DNA of 64,000 bases from Bacteroides oleiciplenus YIT 12058 (lineage in GTDB: Bacteria; Bacteroidota; Bacteroidia; Bacteroidales; Bacteroidaceae): the NCBI RefSeq assembly GCF_000315485.1, contig NZ_JH992940.1:727574-791573 (forward strand), written 5' to 3'. The number at the start of each line of letters is the position of its first letter. Within the stretch, counting starts at the first letter, position 1. Shown in pieces: positions 6,904 to 20,015 of the stretch. The position numbers and the translations under genes were made by a program. Below the pieces are notes generated by a model that was given only the letters and a program-made list of their open reading frames with translations, was not told the origin of the DNA and searched no databases.

Positions 6904-7698
6904 TTATGCTGGTACGTTTGCCGTATCAGTTTCTTTGGGTGTTAATAGTTCCTTGGCGAACCGGACGTTGTATCTCTTCAGGTACGATTGCCAGCAACCA
7001 TTAGAACTACACCAGCGAAAACCATTGTTGCTCATTTGTTTTCTTAACGCTTTGTCAGGAATCTCAGGAAAGAAGAGTTGAAGGCGATTTTTGCGGCTGT
7101 TCTCAACGAATCTGACTTCCCCTACATAATATTCTTTGTTTTCGGTAGTTTTCATCTTCTTGGCTTGTTCCAGTCGTTTTTTGGTGTCGCTGATTCGTCT
7201 GTTGTTATTGGTTAAAGTACAACTGGCAAATCCGATTCTACCCGTGAATGAAGGAGTCAGGACTTCATTGATTTGTTTGTCTGAAAATCCCAATTCGGAG
7301 AGTTGTTGCCGAATTTGTTCGTTCGACAGTTTTTGGGACTTGACAATCTTATTGGCGGCTTTCATGTTATCCTGAAGTTTGACCAGTTCGTCCAGTCTCT
7401 CCTGCAAACGTTCCACGCAGTCATCATCGCCTAGATAAATGGCATTGTTTTTTTCGGCAGCTTCTGCTTTACCTTCAAAATATTCAGCCGTATCTGCCAG
7501 TTTAACACTCTCATCCATATGACCACTAATCCGTTCACGATAGCGTCTGTCTGCCAAGCCATGAACCGGTTGACCGGGAGGAATGACTCCCAACATTTTT
7601 GAAGCTTGTTGATAGGCAGCACTGGATTTTGCTGTCGCACCTGCGGCAAGAGCTTTGTATCTCTCGACTCTTGCTTCCTTCTTTTCTTTACTGTTCAT
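6904..7698 (-). CDS. DUF3560-like protein
   Basis: A 264-residue protein matching DUF3560 by its N-terminal pattern: YKALAAGATAKSSAAYQQA, then IPPGQPVHGLADRRYRERI, then SVKLADTAEYFEGKAEAAE. The family is carried by Bacteroides conjugative and phage elements and its function is unknown. A coiled middle is followed by a C-terminal block (KQMSNNGFRWCSSNGCWQ) seen in related proteins, where a Trp-rich motif ends the chain. It sits with the DUF932-like gene, a common pairing on mobile elements. Confidence 0.7.
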   Translation of the reverse strand: MNSKEKKEARVERYKALAAGATAKSSAAYQQASKMLGVIPPGQPVHGLADRRYRERISGHMDESVKLADTAEYFEGKAEAAEKNNAIYLGDDDCVERLQERLDELVKLQDNMKAANKIVKSQKLSNEQIRQQLSELGFSDKQINEVLTPSFTGRIGFASCTLTNNNRRISDTKKRLEQAKKMKTTENKEYYVGEVRFVENSRKNRLQLFFPEIPDKALRKQMSNNGFRWCSSNGCWQSYLKRYNVRFAKELLTPKETDTANVPA

Positions 7699-13871: not shown

Positions 13872-14788
13872 AACGAGTGTTGAATGTCTTTTTGCACGGC
13901 TTTTGTAGCTTTGATTGCCTCCAGCACATTGTCACGGATACTTTCAAGCCAAGATAAATTTTTGAACGCTAAATCCGCATCATTGCTGTAGAGCGTAGTT
14001 GATACATTTTCAAATTGATCTTCTACATCAATGCTGATACCTTTATCAGTAAGTGACACTGCGGTAACAGGTGAATCATACCAAGATTTACCGCCAAACC
14101 ATAGCACGTATGTTGGTTCTTCGATTATTCCATCAAGTAGAATCTTGGAAAGTTCATTTTCCTTAAGTATCGAAATGATATTGCAGATTATATCTTCACG
14201 AAGGTTATTTATACGCCCTGTAAAATTGGGAACAACTTTGTTTACAGTTGCTATTGAGATTTTATCCTCGTTGTTACGTTGCCAACTATCAATTAAAACA
14301 GCTTTAGGTTCACTGCAATCCTCTGAATAGAAAGCTGAGTCATAACTCATACCCCTGTGAATATCTATCCATGTCTCGGCTTCTTCACGAGAAGGGAATA
14401 ATGCACATTCGGAAATAGACAGTGTACGGGAAGGATGACAATTCGGTTGGCTGACCTTGAAAGTAACGCCCCATAATTCGTTCATGGATTGTAGTTCAGG
14501 GAATACTTCTTCTTTATCCAGCAGATAAACTGTTTTATCGTAATCACTACTTTGAAATATATTTTGTAACCACGTACACATTTCTACTTCTTCGTTGTCC
14601 GTAGAAGTATCAAATATGGCAGCAAAACCACCTCCAATTTGGGATATTATAATCAGATCACTATCAAAAATATCTGAACACGTAATTCCGAGGAGTCCAT
14701 TAGTTGACTTTTGTCGGACAACTATTTTTTCTTTCACTGGTAAGTCACATACTATTTTAGCAAGTTGATTGATTGGTATTTCTTTCAT
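13868..14788 (-). CDS. hypothetical protein
   Basis: A 306-residue alpha/beta protein. An N-terminal beta-rich half (IVVRQKSTNGLLGITCSDIF, QIGGGFAAIFDTS) is followed by a helical part with the segment WFGGKSWYDSPVTAVSLTDK. No catalytic motif or known domain is recognised. It begins the group of genes ahead of the gap at 14789-15034. Confidence 0.6.
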   Translation of the reverse strand: MKEIPINQLAKIVCDLPVKEKIVVRQKSTNGLLGITCSDIFDSDLIIISQIGGGFAAIFDTSTDNEEVEMCTWLQNIFQSSDYDKTVYLLDKEEVFPELQSMNELWGVTFKVSQPNCHPSRTLSISECALFPSREEAETWIDIHRGMSYDSAFYSEDCSEPKAVLIDSWQRNNEDKISIATVNKVVPNFTGRINNLREDIICNIISILKENELSKILLDGIIEEPTYVLWFGGKSWYDSPVTAVSLTDKGISIDVEDQFENVSTTLYSNDADLAFKNLSWLESIRDNVLEAIKATKAVQKDIQHSL

Positions 14789-14875
14789 TTTACCTATTTT
14801 TAAAAATACTGGGAAATATATTAATGAGATAACTCTCCTCTAAATTCTATTTAAACAACAATATGATAATAAGAA

Positions 14876-14983
14876 GATGTGACTACCAAATGGGGTATAT
14901 CTTTATTTCTTCGATTTGCAGCCTCCTATGAGGATGTAGTCTTGTCGAGGTCATCGACATGTCACATCTATCATGGAGGCGGC
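14876..14983. other. structured noncoding element, possible pseudoknot
   Basis: This stretch lies in the 246-nt gap between 13868-14788 and 15035-16129. Three pairings are visible: GCAGCCTCC (14918-14926) with GGAGGCGGC (14975-14983), one mismatch; GTCGA (14944-14948) with TCGAC (14954-14958); and GATGTGAC (14876-14883) with GTCACATC (14961-14968). The last crosses the first, so a pseudoknot or two alternative folds is implied. Orientation and role are unknown; a leader or regulatory RNA for the operon is possible. Confidence 0.4.
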
Positions 14984-15034
14984 ATAAAATTTCTTGGTCC
15001 ATCACATCGTGCCTACCAAACAATAGCTTACTCC

Positions 15035-16129
15035 TTATTTACGCCATTCAGCCATTTTTTTGCTGATATCAATATTATTATCAGTCAACATTTTCTTCAG
15101 GACTGCCAACAAGCGCCAACCTTCATCGTTTCTATACATCTCTGCTTTTGCTGTAATGAAAGCAAGTGACTGATATTTATCAAGGCGGTTATTGGTATCA
15201 TCAATAGCTTTGCAGTTATGAAACCGGATAAGATTTTGCATCGTGTAATACGCTCCAGCACCCTTGTATGCATCAACCCATGTTTTACTTTGAGGAGTGT
15301 CGTGTGGCATCTTAAGGCGCATGTCGTTGAACTTTTTTGCTGCGTTATAAAGCTGTGTGACATTACGTGCTTGCTTGATATGCGCTATTTCTTTATACAA
15401 CGGATAGTAGATTTTATTCTGTAGGTCTGCCTTGAATATGTTACGACTTTTAATACGCTTGTAAGGCACTCCCTTACATTTTCTTTCTTTCAAAGCGTCC
15501 ACATATTTTTTCAATTGTACAATATAATCTTCCGCCATAGCCATGACCACATCGACATTAAACCAACGGTTTCGATCTACGAAATTTGCAGCATCCTTAT
15601 CTTCCATTTTCATCTGGGCATATAGCTCGTTCAGCAACATTTTCCACTGATATTCATAGCCTAAGCGGTGAATCATGCGTGTTACTCCCAAAGGTTCTTT
15701 AGAACGATACGGTTTATAAGTCATCATATAGAACATCTTCGCCATAATCCAGCGCCGGAACAGGCGATTGTTAGGGACCGTACCTTGTTCAACGATTTGA
15801 TTAAAAATTGGATCGTCGTCCTCTAGTACTGAAAGTATTCCATTCCTGTTTGAGGCGATATATCCACCCCCATTCGCCCCCTCCATGGCAAACATATGAC
15901 TTACGTCCACCCCGACATTTCGTAGCGCTTCAATACGTTCCTGTACAGTTTTGAACGATTTAAGTGGTTTGACTGGTATATTCTGGCCGGCCATAGCCAG
16001 ATAGATAGATCCCAAATTTGAATCCTCACCAACTACTGTTGCTACAGTGGTAAACTCTTTCTTTCCGATTGCGAACTCTGCGCCACATTGAGGACACAAA
16101 ATTTTTGTTTTTCTTTTCTTTTTACTCAT
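15035..16129 (-). CDS. hypothetical protein with N-terminal CxxC
   Basis: A 364-residue protein. A basic N-terminus is followed at once by KILCPQCGAEFAIGKKEF, half of a zinc-ribbon-like site. The rest is rich in Lys, Tyr and Met and mostly helical, with a repeated aromatic/basic pattern (RWIMAKMFYMMTYKPYRS). The composition suggests nucleic acid binding, but no family is recognised. It is the second gene downstream of the RT array on the minus strand and may share its transcript. Confidence 0.6.
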   Translation of the reverse strand: MSKKKRKTKILCPQCGAEFAIGKKEFTTVATVVGEDSNLGSIYLAMAGQNIPVKPLKSFKTVQERIEALRNVGVDVSHMFAMEGANGGGYIASNRNGILSVLEDDDPIFNQIVEQGTVPNNRLFRRWIMAKMFYMMTYKPYRSKEPLGVTRMIHRLGYEYQWKMLLNELYAQMKMEDKDAANFVDRNRWFNVDVVMAMAEDYIVQLKKYVDALKERKCKGVPYKRIKSRNIFKADLQNKIYYPLYKEIAHIKQARNVTQLYNAAKKFNDMRLKMPHDTPQSKTWVDAYKGAGAYYTMQNLIRFHNCKAIDDTNNRLDKYQSLAFITAKAEMYRNDEGWRLLAVLKKMLTDNNIDISKKMAEWRK

Positions 16130-16150
16130 CTTGAAATTAATAAATGGTTG

Positions 16151-16612
16151 TTAATTGATATCTGGATCTACCCATTTCTTAAGTATTACCAAATCTTTGT
16201 CCATTTTGCTTTGCCAGAACCACTTGCCCATTTTTTCAGATTCCCATTTAAGACCATTCAGAATCTGACAAAGGACATATAGTTCCAACTCAAACTGAGC
16301 TTTCTCTCGGTGCTCACCAAATAACATAGCATCATCACTCAGCTTCCTTTCGGGCAATGCTCTGAAGTACAAACGTGACTTACTCTCACTCCTCTCCGAT
16401 GGAATAGAATTCTTGTAGCGGTAGTACAACTTTTCAACTTGTGACAGAAATTCATCTGTATCAATGCTTGGATCAACACCTAAATTACCCTCAAACTCTC
16501 CATCTTGTATGATGTATTTGCCGTTCAGTTTCAGACTTCGACTCTGGAAGTCTATTTTGAATTTTGCACCATCTTCAACATTTCGAATCGTCTCCTGATA
16601 TATATTTTCCAT
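16151..16612 (-). CDS. hypothetical protein
   Basis: A 153-residue protein of a type common on Bacteroidales mobile elements. Its pattern is FQSRSLKLNGKYIIQDGEF, then a helix with VEKLYYRYKNSIPSERS, a YFRALPERKLSDDAML segment, and a C-terminal helical block with WESEKMGKWFWQSK. Function unknown. Its ATG at 16612 lies 38 nt beyond the left end of the RT-associated array, so it would be the first protein gene translated after the array if the RT transcript reads through. Confidence 0.6.
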   Translation of the reverse strand: MENIYQETIRNVEDGAKFKIDFQSRSLKLNGKYIIQDGEFEGNLGVDPSIDTDEFLSQVEKLYYRYKNSIPSERSESKSRLYFRALPERKLSDDAMLFGEHREKAQFELELYVLCQILNGLKWESEKMGKWFWQSKMDKDLVILKKWVDPDIN

Positions 16613-16650
16613 ATACTCTTATGATTATCAATTATTTGTACTCGAACCAC

Positions 16651-16785
16651 TGACGCATTACTTTATTATTCTGATTTATACAGCGTAACTAGGTCCTGAG
16701 ACTTGGGTCAGGACCTAGTATCCTGTATATTGAACCTGGCCCCTTGCACAATACCCGGTTGCGTTACCATTGAGTCTCATTTAGA
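16651..16785 (-). ncRNA. RT array unit 1 (distal)
   Basis: First box at 16651-16684. The closing stem is TACAG (16679-16683) with CTGTA (16723-16727). Inside is a perfect 11-bp hairpin, CTAGGTCCTGA (16689-16699) with TCAGGACCTAG (16708-16718) and an 8-nt loop. The second box is weakly preserved (ATTGAACCTGG, CCCCTTGCAC), so this distal unit may be the most degraded. Confidence 0.6.
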
Positions 16786-16975
16786 AGGCACATTACTTTA
16801 TTAATTTGATATGTACAGCGTGTGTGCTGGCCTTTAACCTCATATACAGCCGATAGCTGGAGATGAGGTGGTGGCCGCAATTAAAGGCTGTCCCATTGAA
16901 ATCCTAATCTTGACCCATCACTTTGTGCTAAGTTTTATGTTTCATAGAAATTGTTATTATTCAGTCTCGTTAGGC
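16786..16975 (-). ncRNA. RT array unit 2
   Basis: First box at 16786-16819. Closing stem ACAGC (16815-16819) with GCTGT (16887-16891). It continues as CTTTAA (16832-16837) with TTAAAG (16881-16886), then CCTCAT (16838-16843) with ATGAGG (16863-16868). Second box from 16893 (ATTGAAATCCTAATCTTGAC), followed by the small CAC-TTT-GTG hairpin. With unit 3 it carries the clearest second box. Confidence 0.65.
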
Positions 16976-17133
16976 TGGCACATTGCTTTACGAATTTGAT
17001 ATGAGCAGCTATTCTTTACTGGCGGCCACGACAATCAGGAGTCGGTCCCCAGTAACTGTAAAGCTGAACTATTAAAATCCTAACCTTGACTTTTTCACTT
17101 CGTGGTAAGTTTTTTTCGTGATTCTCAAAATAT
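16976..17133 (-). ncRNA. RT array unit 3
   Basis: First box at 16976-17009. Closing stem CAGC (17006-17009) with GCTG (17063-17066), then CTTTA (17014-17018) with TAAAG (17059-17063), ACTGG with CCAGT (17018-17022 and 17049-17053), and an inner CGAC/GTCG pairing. Second box from about 17068 (ATTAAAATCCTAACCTTGAC), followed by CAC-TTC-GTG. Confidence 0.65.
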
Positions 17134-17300
17134 CGGCACATATCTTTAAACATTTGATGTATGCCGCGGCTCGAAGCCATAGCGGCGCGTCGGAGTGCTC
17201 AGTAGAGAGTTCCGACGCGCAGGGGGGGCTTATTGAGCAGGGCACGCTAAATACTACTCCTTGAATCACGCTATTGTGCTAAAAAAAGTTCTCTAAATAA
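17134..17300 (-). ncRNA. RT array unit 4
   Basis: First box at 17134-17167. The closing stem is TGCC with GGCA (17162-17165 and 17240-17243). The main hairpin is a perfect 10-bp GC-rich stem, GCGCGTCGGA (17185-17194) with TCCGACGCGC (17211-17220). Second box ACTACTCCTTGAATCAC, with its CAC-to-GTG hairpin. The GC-rich hairpin shares no sequence with the other units although the position is the same. Confidence 0.65.
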
Positions 17301-17482
17301 CGACACATATCTTTACTTTTTTGATGTCTCCTGCGTATTTCCAGCTCGGAAGAGTCTGAAGGCGGTGAATAACACGGCCTTCAAGACTTTGTAGAAGCTG
17401 GATTAACCACGCGGGCTCTAAACTCTTATTCCTTGAACTTTATCACTGATGTGTTTCAGTTTAATTATGGATGTCAGGCAAG
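17301..17482 (-). ncRNA. RT array unit 5
   Basis: First box at 17301-17334. Closing stem GCGT (17333-17336) with ACGC (17409-17412). Nested stems: CCAGCT (17341-17346) with AGCTGG (17396-17401), AGTCT (17353-17357) with AGACT (17384-17388), and GAAGGC (17358-17363) with GCCTTC (17377-17382). Second box CTCTTATTCCTTGAAC, then CAC-TGAT-GTG. Confidence 0.65.
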
Positions 17483-17643
17483 TGACACATTGCTTTAGTT
17501 ACTTGATATTTACAGGAAAGAACCAGAATCAGGATGGATTCACCGGGTGATTAAACCGGTGAATCAAGTATGGGTTCTGGTATACTAGATCTGTAAATTA
17601 AAATTCCTTGCTCTTCATCATTCGCCGTGTGTTCGGTAGGTTC
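17483..17643 (-). ncRNA. RT array unit 6 (next to the RT stop)
   Basis: First box at 17483-17516. Closing stem TTTACAG (17509-17515) with CTGTAAA (17591-17597), 7 bp. Inside are ACCAGAA (17522-17528) with TTCTGGT (17575-17581), and a perfect 10-bp GATTCACCGG (17537-17546) with CCGGTGAATC (17556-17565). Second box TTAAAATTCCTTGCTC runs up to the RT stop codon at 17644-17646. Confidence 0.65.
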
Positions 17644-18909
17644 CTATAATGATGCAACCAGCGTGTTATACACGGCACGTCTTGTCAATATGGCGTTCTG
17701 CATACAGCCAATGGTCAGGTAACCTGGGATGTTGCTGTTAGTCTTGCCGCGGTTGGCTTTCACGTTCCGCCCCAGGCCCCGGACTATGCAGCCGTCGCTC
17801 TTGGTCTTGACATAACCTAAACCACCCACCTTGCGTTTTCCGGTCTCTACGGCTCTCAGACAATCCATTACGAACTTGTTCAGCTCGTCAAGGTCTTTCC
17901 GCACATTGCATACCGGCAGTATTTGAGTAGCCCAACTGAACTCCCCGTTGCCTTTGTAGAGGTAGCGGTTCACAGCATTAACGGCTTTTGCCAGTGATAC
18001 GCCCGGCTTGCCGATTGTACGCTTTTCTATTTCGTTCTGGAATGTCTTGATACGGCTGGAAGATAGCGAGATCATACTGCCTTTGATACTGAATCCAAGA
18101 AACTTGAACCACTTATCGGTAGTCAGATATTCCACTTTCTTTGGGTTTAGCTTCATAGTTTTCTCTTCCAGCCGGCTCTGGAGCACGTTCATGGCTTTCT
18201 CGTACTCTTCTCCGAGGAACAACATGTCATCCGAATAGCGTGTGTAGAAGCCATTCATTTGCGACAGCTCATCATCAAGTTCATACAGCAGCACATCTGC
18301 CAGCCAGCTTGCCACGGCGCATCCTTGTTTCAGGGACTGGAATTGACGCTGAAGGTTGTTGTCCTCGTCGAAGTACAGGTCCGAGTGGTAGTATTTTCGC
18401 AACACGTCAATCAGAGTGGAATGACCGTGCTTTGCCTCTACTATGTCAAACGCCTCGTCAATATACTGGAGCAGTACGCTATCGAAATATTTGCTGAGGT
18501 CTGACTTCCAGCCAAAGTATCCGTCTTTTTCAGTAGCTGCCATTTTATTACTTATTTCGGTCACAACCTTGCCGCATCCGGTCCCTATTTGGTAGGATTT
18601 ACACGAGACATGAACCATTTCGGGCATCAGATCGAAAAGCAAGTCATTAGCGATGCTTAATATCACCCGGTCGATAGGTTCGTTCACATAAACCGTGCGA
18701 AACTCGCCGTTCTCTTTCGGTATCTGAGCGGTGTGAGGAGGTGAGATTTCATACTTCCCTTTCTGCATGGCATCAGCAATCGCTATCCGGGTGTTTTCAT
18801 CGGTCAGCAATATGAGCTGATCTTTCCGGATGTCTTTGCCAACGCCTTTCTCAATCGCCTTCGTCCATCTGTCTATCTCAAAAAACTTCTCCAAAATTTT
18901 ATCTGCCAT
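17644..18909 (-). CDS. reverse transcriptase, unclassified family
   Basis: A 421-residue RNA-dependent DNA polymerase. Palm motifs are intact: an N-terminal IPKENGEFRTVYVNEPIDRV (residues 63-82), the first catalytic Asp block SDLSKYFDSV (D137, D143), QGCAVASWLAD (195-205), the catalytic YSDD (225-228), then LNPKKVEYL and FLGFSI (270-275). A helical thumb and a basic Gly-rich C-terminal tail of about 60 residues follow (GLGRNVKANRGKTNSN). QGxxxS argues against a diversity-generating RT, which has a different motif here. No maturase, HNH, integrase or retron VTG signature is seen. It is the third gene of an operon, overlaps the upstream gene by 11 nt, and is followed immediately by the six-unit array, its likely RNA partner or template. 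Confidence 0.9.
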   Translation of the reverse strand: MADKILEKFFEIDRWTKAIEKGVGKDIRKDQLILLTDENTRIAIADAMQKGKYEISPPHTAQIPKENGEFRTVYVNEPIDRVILSIANDLLFDLMPEMVHVSCKSYQIGTGCGKVVTEISNKMAATEKDGYFGWKSDLSKYFDSVLLQYIDEAFDIVEAKHGHSTLIDVLRKYYHSDLYFDEDNNLQRQFQSLKQGCAVASWLADVLLYELDDELSQMNGFYTRYSDDMLFLGEEYEKAMNVLQSRLEEKTMKLNPKKVEYLTTDKWFKFLGFSIKGSMISLSSSRIKTFQNEIEKRTIGKPGVSLAKAVNAVNRYLYKGNGEFSWATQILPVCNVRKDLDELNKFVMDCLRAVETGKRKVGGLGYVKTKSDGCIVRGLGRNVKANRGKTNSNIPGYLTIGCMQNAILTRRAVYNTLVASL

Positions 18910-19300
18910 ACTTTTCTCTATTATATAACTTATCTATTTTCTCTTGTATGCAGAGAGCCTTTTTTAAACCGATTGGACTGAATGTCTGTGCTTCAGTACA
19001 TCCATCATTACTGTAAGTAAGACAGCAAAATGCCCCATCGGGATACTTAACATGTATGCGAGGCTTTCCCCAATGCATATCTAAATAAATTTTACGGGTA
19101 AAATAGTCCTCCCCTTCTTGTTCGTCCTCCCATGCCGGAAGAATGTATGTCCGGGACTTTACTTGAGTATCAGGAAACCCTGCCTTGTTGCCCCAAAACC
19201 AATCATTTTTTCCAATGATTACTCTTTCATCAGTCAGGATATAGCCATTATCACGGGCTATTTCATCTGCTACAGTAAGCAATATTTCATTTATATTCAT
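18899..19300 (-). CDS. hypothetical protein of the RT operon
   Basis: The preferred start at ATG 19300 (MNINEILLTVADEIARDNGY) gives 133 residues. A helical N-terminus is followed by a beta-rich body with aromatic clusters (IIGKNDWFWGNKAGF, KIYLDMHWGKPRIHVKYPDG) and a C-terminal helix. No family recognised. It overlaps the gene before it by 14 nt and the RT after it by 11 nt. This tight coupling suggests that it is made together with the RT, although overlaps are frequent throughout this region. Confidence 0.6.
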   Translation of the reverse strand: MNINEILLTVADEIARDNGYILTDERVIIGKNDWFWGNKAGFPDTQVKSRTYILPAWEDEQEGEDYFTRKIYLDMHWGKPRIHVKYPDGAFCCLTYSNDGCTEAQTFSPIGLKKALCIQEKIDKLYNREKYGR

Positions 19301-19889
19301 AAGCAAAGAATTTATCAAAACCTCCATTTTCATTATAAGGAAAATCCCCAGCATAATATTCATACCACATCGTACCACACTCGGTATGCCGTTTTGTTAA
19401 CTTATAAATAGCCTTTCCTCTTTTCAGAAACTTGAAACGTGACAAAACCTCAACTTTGTCTATATCCTGAAAACAGTCTTTCCAGTTCTGTTCATCCGTA
19501 CCGGTTCGTAGAGGAACAGTAGCTTGTTTAAGAATCCATTCGCCAAACCCAATACGGGTTATATATTGATTCTTTTCTATATCCTTCCATGCCGTATCGC
19601 AACATTCTTCCAATGTGGGAAAAGAGTTTGGAAATTTAGTACGATCATTCCCGTCACGTAAAATAGCATGCCCATACTTATCGCAAATGATAAACATGAT
19701 TCCAGGACTACATTCAAAGTCACGCTCACAGTATCCATAAGGAGCATCGCAGAGCCAGCTCCATTCGTGATTGCCCGATGTATTACGAGCAACGTATCGG
19801 CGGGGACCACCTTTCTTGGGTTTAACCGACCATACCTCCATGCACTGTCCTCTATCAATATGATGTAATTTTACTTTCAATACTTTCAT
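19287..19889 (-). CDS. hypothetical protein, first gene of RT operon
   Basis: A 200-residue protein rich in Trp, Cys and aromatic residues (NTSGNHEWSWLCDAPYGYC, CGTMWYEYYAGDFPYNENGG). It has no recognised domain, signal peptide or membrane segment. It starts after the 375-nt gap that holds the element at 20016-20166, so the operon 19889-17644 may have its own leader. No clear TAnnTTTG promoter box is visible in front of it. Confidence 0.6.
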   Translation of the reverse strand: MKVLKVKLHHIDRGQCMEVWSVKPKKGGPRRYVARNTSGNHEWSWLCDAPYGYCERDFECSPGIMFIICDKYGHAILRDGNDRTKFPNSFPTLEECCDTAWKDIEKNQYITRIGFGEWILKQATVPLRTGTDEQNWKDCFQDIDKVEVLSRFKFLKRGKAIYKLTKRHTECGTMWYEYYAGDFPYNENGGFDKFFAYEYK

Positions 19890-20015
19890 AACTGATATAT
19901 TTTTAATGATTTTACAATGTTGTTTTCCAAGAGTAGAGATTCATTTTACCCTTACGGTGAGTAAATCCCAATCTTTTTTTATTATTTTTCATCTTTCTGC
20001 TCAGTTTTTCTAAAA

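What the first reader, a model, noticed from the sequence alone, without database searches (positions are those of the whole stretch)
16651..18909. Reverse transcriptase followed by a six-unit array of structured repeats
The sequence shows an intact RT gene whose stop codon is followed at once by six diverged units that fill the whole gap to the next gene. Units keep a 34-nt box and a second short box, while the hairpin domain between them differs in sequence from unit to unit but keeps its closing stem (TACAG/CTGTA, ACAGC/GCTGT, CAGC/GCTG, TGCC/GGCA, GCGT/ACGC, TTTACAG/CTGTAAA). Selection for structure and not sequence is the simplest reading. Known RT systems use one ncRNA (retrons, DRT2-type) or a template/variable repeat pair (DGR); an array of six different ncRNA-like units is not something I can match. 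I infer that the units are RNA partners or templates of the RT, possibly giving a set of different cDNAs.
Basis: partly seen in the sequence, partly recalled or inferred. Interest (0 to 1): 0.96.

Follow-up and report, generated by a model that had tools for sequence, protein, structure and literature searches.

The report
Phage reverse transcriptase with RNA array
A prophage gene for a reverse transcriptase (an enzyme that copies RNA into DNA) is followed by six variants of one RNA, predicted to fold into the same knotted shape, and the pairing recurs in many phage sequences, so the RNAs are likely the enzyme's working partners, predicted to offer it several templates at once; I found no held paper that describes it.

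Summary
The reverse transcriptase (RT; 17644-18909, minus strand) is PADLOC class UG27. Six units (16631-17644) follow it, then RTas346, RTas337 and a likely seventh unit. The units share one predicted fold: a 5' hairpin whose loop pairs with the 3' box (pseudoknot), two more long-range helices, and a long arm of unit-specific sequence. Of the scaffold pair cells 83.8% pair against 56.7% shuffled; doubly changed cells 299 against 110.

RT and array are linked both ways. In 158 genomes of the genus, the 7 with array matches are the 7 with the RT. All 7 viral stretches found from the RNA box alone hold the RT.

Units 1, 2, 3 and 5 are inherited by position. Arms show no clear sequence constraint beyond the scaffold stems', but their tips share a UAHC loop. 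So they look like structural arms rather than coded templates. What is copied, and why, is untested.

Verdict: a phage-borne UG/DRT-type system with a multi-unit RNA array; new variant of a known kind; high interest.

The parts
17644..18909 (-). UG27 reverse transcriptase, 421 aa
   Evidence: PADLOC RT_UG27 E 8.6e-234; Pfam RVT_1 E 1.7e-19; catalytic D137, D227, D228 in 76 of 76 aligned RTs
17463..17644 (-). RNA unit 1
   Evidence: model R1 E 4.4e-12
17281..17466 (-). RNA unit 2
   Evidence: model R1 E 8.8e-15; orthologue arms in 12 loci, 7 of 16 predicted arm pairs with compensatory change
17114..17291 (-). RNA unit 3
   Evidence: model R1 E 3.7e-12
16956..17117 (-). RNA unit 4 (extra unit, no clear orthologue in 9 compared arrays)
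   Evidence: model R1 E 1.8e-11
16766..16940 (-). RNA unit 5
   Evidence: model R1 E 2.4e-11
16631..16776 (-). RNA unit 6
   Evidence: model R1 E 4.3e-8
16151..16612 (-). RTas346 accessory protein, 153 aa, function unknown
   Evidence: PADLOC RTas346 E 6.8e-71; AlphaFold2 mean pLDDT 93, no PDB match at E <= 0.001, one uncharacterised phage protein in BFVD at E 2.6e-15
15035..16129 (-). RTas337 accessory protein, 364 aa, one CxxC near the N-terminus
   Evidence: PADLOC RTas337 E 2.3e-155; 1319 homologues at E <= 0.001; AlphaFold2 mean pLDDT 82, no PDB match at E <= 0.001
14870..15025 (-). likely RNA unit 7, behind RTas337; bounds by eye
   Evidence: 3' box E 0.14 here, 3e-4 to 9e-3 at the same place in 8 relatives; outer helix changes on both sides in 9 loci, by eye; not reported by R1 in the window

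Best explanation
A prophage-borne UG27 reverse transcriptase gene is followed by six tandem units of one RNA that is predicted to form a pseudoknot, plus a likely seventh two genes on, and these RNAs likely work as its partners, each predicted to hold one RT and offer it a template. Shown: the covarying scaffold, the linkage of RT, array and the two accessory genes, the intact catalytic residues, and inheritance of most units by position. Inferred: one transcript carries RT, array, RTas346 and RTas337. RT grips the conserved scaffold of each unit. The long arm is a rigid stem-loop that fixes the 5' edge of the template and docks through its UAHC tip to a partner protein or another unit. The template is the unpaired stretch just 3' of the arm (AUCRRA-N4-UAAAG). 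Supplying several units in cis loads several RTs into one particle, as the hexamers of DRT9 and DRT3 would suggest. The DNA made, with RTas346 and RTas337, serves the phage, most likely against rival phages or host defences.
For: Scaffold covariation, 48 units from 11 loci: 83.8% of 993 cells paired against 56.7% shuffled (0 of 500 reach it) and at most 44.7% slid; 299 doubly changed cells against 110; covariation score 0.707 against 0.238. The structure was read from this same alignment, which favours it over the slid versions. Specificity: six matches in 7.09 Mb; 227 matches at E <= 1 over 82 loci, none on the antisense strand, 73 of 82 loci with at least one, seeds and near-duplicates included. 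The box profile gave no antisense hit at E < 1 other than the window's own array held in reverse. Linkage: same 7 of 158 genomes for RNA and RT, 8 RTs and 8 arrays; 7 of 7 stretches found from the box alone hold the RT. RTas346 ORFs in 76 and RTas337 ORFs in 70 of 82 loci. Class: UG17 (DRT10) and Drt9 are the third and fifth best PADLOC matches. [quoted passage not shown] here the J3 box lies directly 3' of the arm, and residue 399 is Thr or Ser in 76 of 76. UAHC tips in 83 of 212 arms against 16.6 shuffled. G.U over A.C in arm helices with strict flanks, 25 to 2, suggests folding as sense RNA. No minus-strand terminator-like site in 14700-20000 and no minus-strand TAnnTTTG between 15896 and 20430.
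Against: No RNA, cDNA or complex was seen. The A-B-A' repeat that DRT10 templates need does not covary in the J3 box (165 of 300 within-array permutations reach the observed value), so the proposed template gets no support from that test. The N4 core of J3 is hardly conserved between orthologous units (0.41 identity, 0.31-0.37 for unrelated units). The number of pairs with a double change (21) is no evidence: shuffles give 19.4 and 70 of 500 reach 21. One relative (L086, 40% identical RT) shows no array, and in L077 both gaps are 6 nt with units only behind RTas337. Other G.U to A.C counts are weaker or flat: 42 to 19, 84 to 80 in orthologue differences, 526 to 575, 232 to 273 and 124 to 141 with lax helices. 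Defence or competition is unproven; no effector domain was recognised.
Confidence: 0.45

Rival explanations
1. The arms themselves are the templates: the RT copies each unit's arm, so one locus writes a set of different hairpin cDNAs.
For: Arms are the unit-specific part and most are inherited by position; unit 2 keeps four inner pairs unchanged in 12 of 12 relatives; binned by RT third-position identity, arms are on average more alike than those positions (0.90 against 0.88, n 5; 0.76 against 0.62, n 9; 0.55 against 0.49, n 103, first 140 pairs of the list aligned, 118 with results).
Against: In orthologous units arm stems are 0.68 identical on a 0.53 baseline, P5 stems 0.66 on about 0.3 (a rough comparison, since arms were aligned with gaps and P5 by column). 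G.U over A.C at 25 to 2 fits an RNA fold better than a cDNA fold, with weaker counts elsewhere. The shared tip loop points to a common docking role.
Confidence: 0.2
2. The array is a functional RNA of the operon (regulatory, decoy or packaging RNA) that the RT does not use; linkage is due to one gene cassette.
For: Unknown accessory proteins could bind it; array and RT can recombine apart: L019 and L027 have 97% identical arms but 81% identical RTs.
Against: RT and RNA occur in the same 7 of 158 genomes. Relatives of this RT class use adjacent ncRNAs (PMC12483538, PMC12632851, PMC12489045; passages).
Confidence: 0.17
3. RNA-antitoxin array of type III toxin-antitoxin kind: tandem pseudoknots neutralise a toxin encoded by RTas346.
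For: Tandem pseudoknotted units next to a small gene resemble ToxIN in layout (recalled).
Against: An RT accompanies the arrays examined, apart from stretches cut before it; units are about 170 nt with long arms (recalled for ToxI: about 36 nt). No ToxN-like chain among the listed Foldseek matches of RTas346, though absence from that list excludes nothing.
Confidence: 0.05
4. DNA-level element: arms are recombination or spacer-like sites gained and lost as in integrons or CRISPR.
For: Unit number varies (0 to 8 box hits in the RT-RTas346 gap) and unit 4 of the window is extra.
Against: Collinear inheritance of most units, change on average no faster than RT third positions (two of the five pairs in the 0.80-0.95 bin, L008-L009 and L009-L010, are slightly faster), RNA-sense covariation, no arm matches beyond chance in own genome (best other E 0.01), phages (best E 4) or plasmids (none).
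Confidence: 0.03

Closest known systems
DRT10 (UG17): RT + 137-nt ncRNA + SLATT protein (PMC12632851, passages)
   Same: UG-class RT with an adjacent structured ncRNA and an accessory gene; hydroxyl residues in a conserved C-terminus; stable stem-loop directly 5' of an unpaired segment
   Different: Here up to eight detected, diverged units per locus instead of one ncRNA; pseudoknotted units with long arms; no SLATT seen; no A-B-A' covariation in J3; found on phage and prophage contigs
DRT9 (UG28): RT + one ncRNA, hexameric, poly-dA (PMC12483538, PMC12489045; passages)
   Same: RT-ncRNA system; relative among UG classes (PADLOC Drt9 E 2.4e-23)
   Different: One ncRNA with a conserved U-tract, two components; no array
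DRT2 (UG2): pseudoknotted ncRNA, repetitive cDNA gene (PMC12039810, start of abstract in a listing)
   Same: RT bound to a neighbouring pseudoknotted ncRNA
   Different: Single ncRNA; RT match weak (PADLOC E 5.7e-12); NCBIfam Drt2 41.1 bits against cut-off 390
Retrons
   Same: RT with an ncRNA that bears a long variable hairpin (recalled)
   Different: RT below the retron St85 cut-off (45.1 against 235 bits); single ncRNA in retrons (recalled)
Type III toxin-antitoxin (ToxIN, AbiQ)
   Same: Tandem pseudoknotted RNA units beside a small gene (recalled)
   Different: RT-linked, units about five times longer (ToxI length recalled), no ToxN fold in the matches listed

Membership tests
UG/Abi (DRT-type) reverse transcriptases, class UG27 | RT of the UG27 sequence class | tested here: met
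   PADLOC RT_UG27 E 8.6e-234, 774 bits, 1-421 of 421; next best UG26 124 bits
UG/Abi (DRT-type) reverse transcriptases, class UG27 | RT-associated genes RTas337 and RTas346 beside the RT | tested here: met
   relatives. That PADLOC's two models belong to UG27 is my inference from co-occurrence
ncRNA-type DRT (DRT2, DRT3, DRT9, DRT10) | adjacent, conserved structured ncRNA | tested here: met
   but as an array of units, unlike these
ncRNA-type DRT (DRT2, DRT3, DRT9, DRT10) | ncRNA bound and reverse transcribed by the RT | not testable with these tools
   needs RIP-seq and cDNA sequencing
ncRNA-type DRT (DRT2, DRT3, DRT9, DRT10) | defence against phage | not testable with these tools
   no assay
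DRT10 | A-B-A' pattern in the template segment | tested here: not met
   J3 box: 165 of 300 within-array permutations reach the observed value, 191 distinct boxes; only this segment was tested, and the real template is unknown
DRT10 | SLATT effector gene | tested here: not met
   neighbours are RTas346 and RTas337; no Pfam family at E <= 0.001 for either window protein
Retron | RT scores as a retron RT | tested here: not met
   NCBIfam retron_St85_RT 45.1 bits against cut-off 235; PADLOC RT_Ec107-like E 2.3e-11 against UG27 E 8.6e-234
Diversity-generating retroelement | template repeat with a variable repeat in a target gene | not tested
   no dedicated TR/VR search was run
Type III toxin-antitoxin | ToxN-like endoribonuclease beside the RNA array | tested here: inconclusive
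   no such chain among listed Foldseek and VIA-align matches of RTas346
CRISPR array | near-identical repeats with unrelated, acquired spacers | tested here: not met
   scaffolds diverged, variable parts self-complementary and mostly inherited by position

The most novel reading that the evidence does not exclude
A phage carries a multiplex DNA writer: one reverse transcriptase served by a bank of several different template RNAs on a single transcript, each unit specifying its own DNA product, used as a weapon or shield in phage conflict.
Probability: 0.2. Interest if true: 0.97.

Novelty: new variant of a known kind. Interest (0 to 1): 0.85.

Why it matters
The ncRNA-using members of this RT family that I could read about (DRT2, DRT3, DRT9, DRT10) are described with one ncRNA each. 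Here a phage lineage supplies its RT with many variants of a pseudoknotted RNA that matches no Rfam family. That makes testable why an RT needs several RNA partners (oligomer assembly or several products). It gives a covariance model for finding the system, and offers a natural case of multi-unit RNA delivery to an RT.

Full report
What is there. The RT is a 421-aa ORF on the minus strand. PADLOC names it RT_UG27 at E 8.6e-234; RT_UG26 is a distant second, and UG17 (now DRT10, PMC12632851), a general RT model and Drt9 follow. The two genes behind the array match PADLOC RTas346 and RTas337. The window looks like a Mu-like prophage region: Mu-type portal, Clp protease and KilA-N/antirepressor proteins, and a 77-kb viral contig in IMG/VR carries an identical RT. 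PADLOC files UG27 under the label DRT; what has been shown of UG27 itself I could not find in the held papers.

The array. In RT sense each unit reads: a short hairpin P5 with loop RRYAYA; the 5' strand of a long-range helix (PK2 in my naming) and of a second (P3); a closing stem P1 with a long unit-specific arm; an unpaired box AUCRRA-N4-UAAAG (J3); the sequence URURYC that pairs back to the P5 loop (pseudoknot PK1); and the 3' strands of P3 and PK2. A scan of all column pairs in 48 units from 11 loci ranked pairs of P5, PK1, PK2, P3 and P1 high. Counted as a named structure, 83.8% of 993 cells pair (shuffled 56.7, slid at most 44.7), 299 cells are doubly changed (shuffled 110), and PK1 pairs in 98.4% of cells. 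All 21 pairs hold at least one double change, but that measure does not discriminate: 70 of 500 shuffles reach it. The structure was read from this same alignment, so the slid control favours it.

Specificity and linkage. A covariance model built from those units gives six matches and nothing else up to E 10 in the 7.09-Mb genome, with 150 of 808 first-look candidates scored. Over 82 related loci it gives 227 matches at E <= 1, all in RT sense, in 73 loci. The nine without a match are L047, L056, L081, L082 and L085 (little or no 3' flank), L061, L073 and L077 (hairpin arrays with diverged boxes, by eye) and L086 (40% identical RT, none seen). Many of the 82 are near-duplicates, and 11 gave the seeds; 55 of the 76 loci with a complete RT remain below 95% RT identity. 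Searching 158 genomes of the genus with the RNA model finds 7 (stricter filters, at most 16 candidates scored per listed genome), and searching the same 158 with the RT finds the same 7. Together they carry 8 RTs, each with matches in RT sense that start at most about 180 bases behind the RT. From the 3' box alone, 7 viral stretches were found: 7 of 7 hold the RT and RTas346 (cut in L091), 6 of 7 RTas337 (cut in L093), and two, L092 and L093, are new. The likely seventh unit behind RTas337 has counterparts in 8 further loci whose outer helix keeps pairing through changes, read by eye; 31 of 79 loci have at least one box hit there.

How units evolve. Arms of one array are unrelated in sequence. 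Unit 1 of the window is most like unit 1 in 8 of 9 relatives, unit 2 like unit 2 in 9 of 9, unit 3 like unit 3 in 7 of 9 (unit 5 in L022 and unit 6 in L033, both longer arrays), and unit 5 like unit 4 in 8 of 9 (unit 7 of 8 in L033). Unit 6 matches the last unit best in 5 of 9, with low scores, and unit 4 has no clear counterpart. By bins of RT third-position identity, arms are on average at least as conserved as those positions (118 pairs with results of the first 140 aligned), though single pairs go the other way, some because unit numbers differ. So this is no fast-turnover store. In orthologous units, groups set by eye, 28 pairs, arm stems are 0.68 identical (unrelated baseline 0.53), P5 stems 0.66 (baseline about 0.3), the J3 fixed letters 0.99, and the J3 core only 0.41. 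I see no clear sequence constraint on arms beyond structure. An exception: unit 2 keeps four inner pairs in 12 of 12 relatives. Arm tips share U-A-[ACU]-C: 83 of 212 loops against 16.6 expected by shuffling, maximum 27, and 74 of 192 distinct tips; counted were arms with at least 14 enclosing pairs in a minimum-energy fold. This is the strongest sign that arms do one common job. A strict count of single mismatches inside arm helices gives G.U 25 and A.C 2, as expected if the RNA strand in RT sense folds; looser counts are less clear or flat.

Mechanism. [quoted passage not shown] DRT9 forms hexamers held in part by its ncRNA (PMC12483538 and PMC12489045, passages), and DRT3 a 6:6:6 complex (PMC13213688, part 1 of 2 of the text). 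UG27 units place the J3 box directly behind the arm, and the RT C-terminus keeps hydroxyl residues (399 Thr or Ser in 76 of 76; 414 Tyr 71, Phe 5). I therefore propose that each unit is an RT-holding RNA with J3 as template and the arm as boundary and dock, and that the array loads several RTs at once. The A-B-A' test in J3 is negative, so this template assignment is a guess by position. Two accessory proteins without a recognised fold would act on or with the product. Carriage by phages and prophages (IMG/VR contigs; Bacteroides phage BS-TP1; no plasmid hit at E <= 1e-20) argues for a role in phage life or conflict, though the loci came mostly from a viral collection. RTas337 has 1319 homologues, so that gene at least is common.

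Known or new. RT class and accessory genes are catalogued; the RNA family and the array were found in no held paper (open-licence papers only, listings capped). I file it as a new variant of the ncRNA-using UG/DRT systems, not as DRT9 or DRT10.

Noticed in passing
L019, L026, L027: L019 shares arrays 94-97% identical in the arms with L026 and L027 while its RT is only 81-82% identical: array and RT appear to have been exchanged.
   Followed up: partly
L012, L014: RTs 61% identical overall, yet 267 shared 18-mers in and behind the array; in the alignment the C-terminal halves are far more alike than the N-terminal halves, suggesting a chimeric RT whose C-terminus travels with the array.
   Followed up: partly
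L077:8570-8700: A unit behind RTas337 with a near-perfect inverted repeat of about 31 bp; a 24-mer from it occurs in no other viral contig.
   Followed up: partly
L021:7001-8263 (Bacteroides phage BS-TP1): The UG27 RT is annotated as tail protein, and the 1.35-kb array has no annotation; some RTas337 homologues carry the name ubiquitin carboxyl-hydrolase.
   Followed up: no
L069:7260-10290: The RT-RTas346 gap is 3 kb; reading frames appear to lie between the RT and a few units.
   Followed up: no
L086: Most distant RT (40%) has no array seen and a second RT-like stretch at 2721-2930.
   Followed up: no
   Followed up: no
window 6904-7698: DUF3560 protein that matches a PHROG named primase over residues 86-251.
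   Followed up: no
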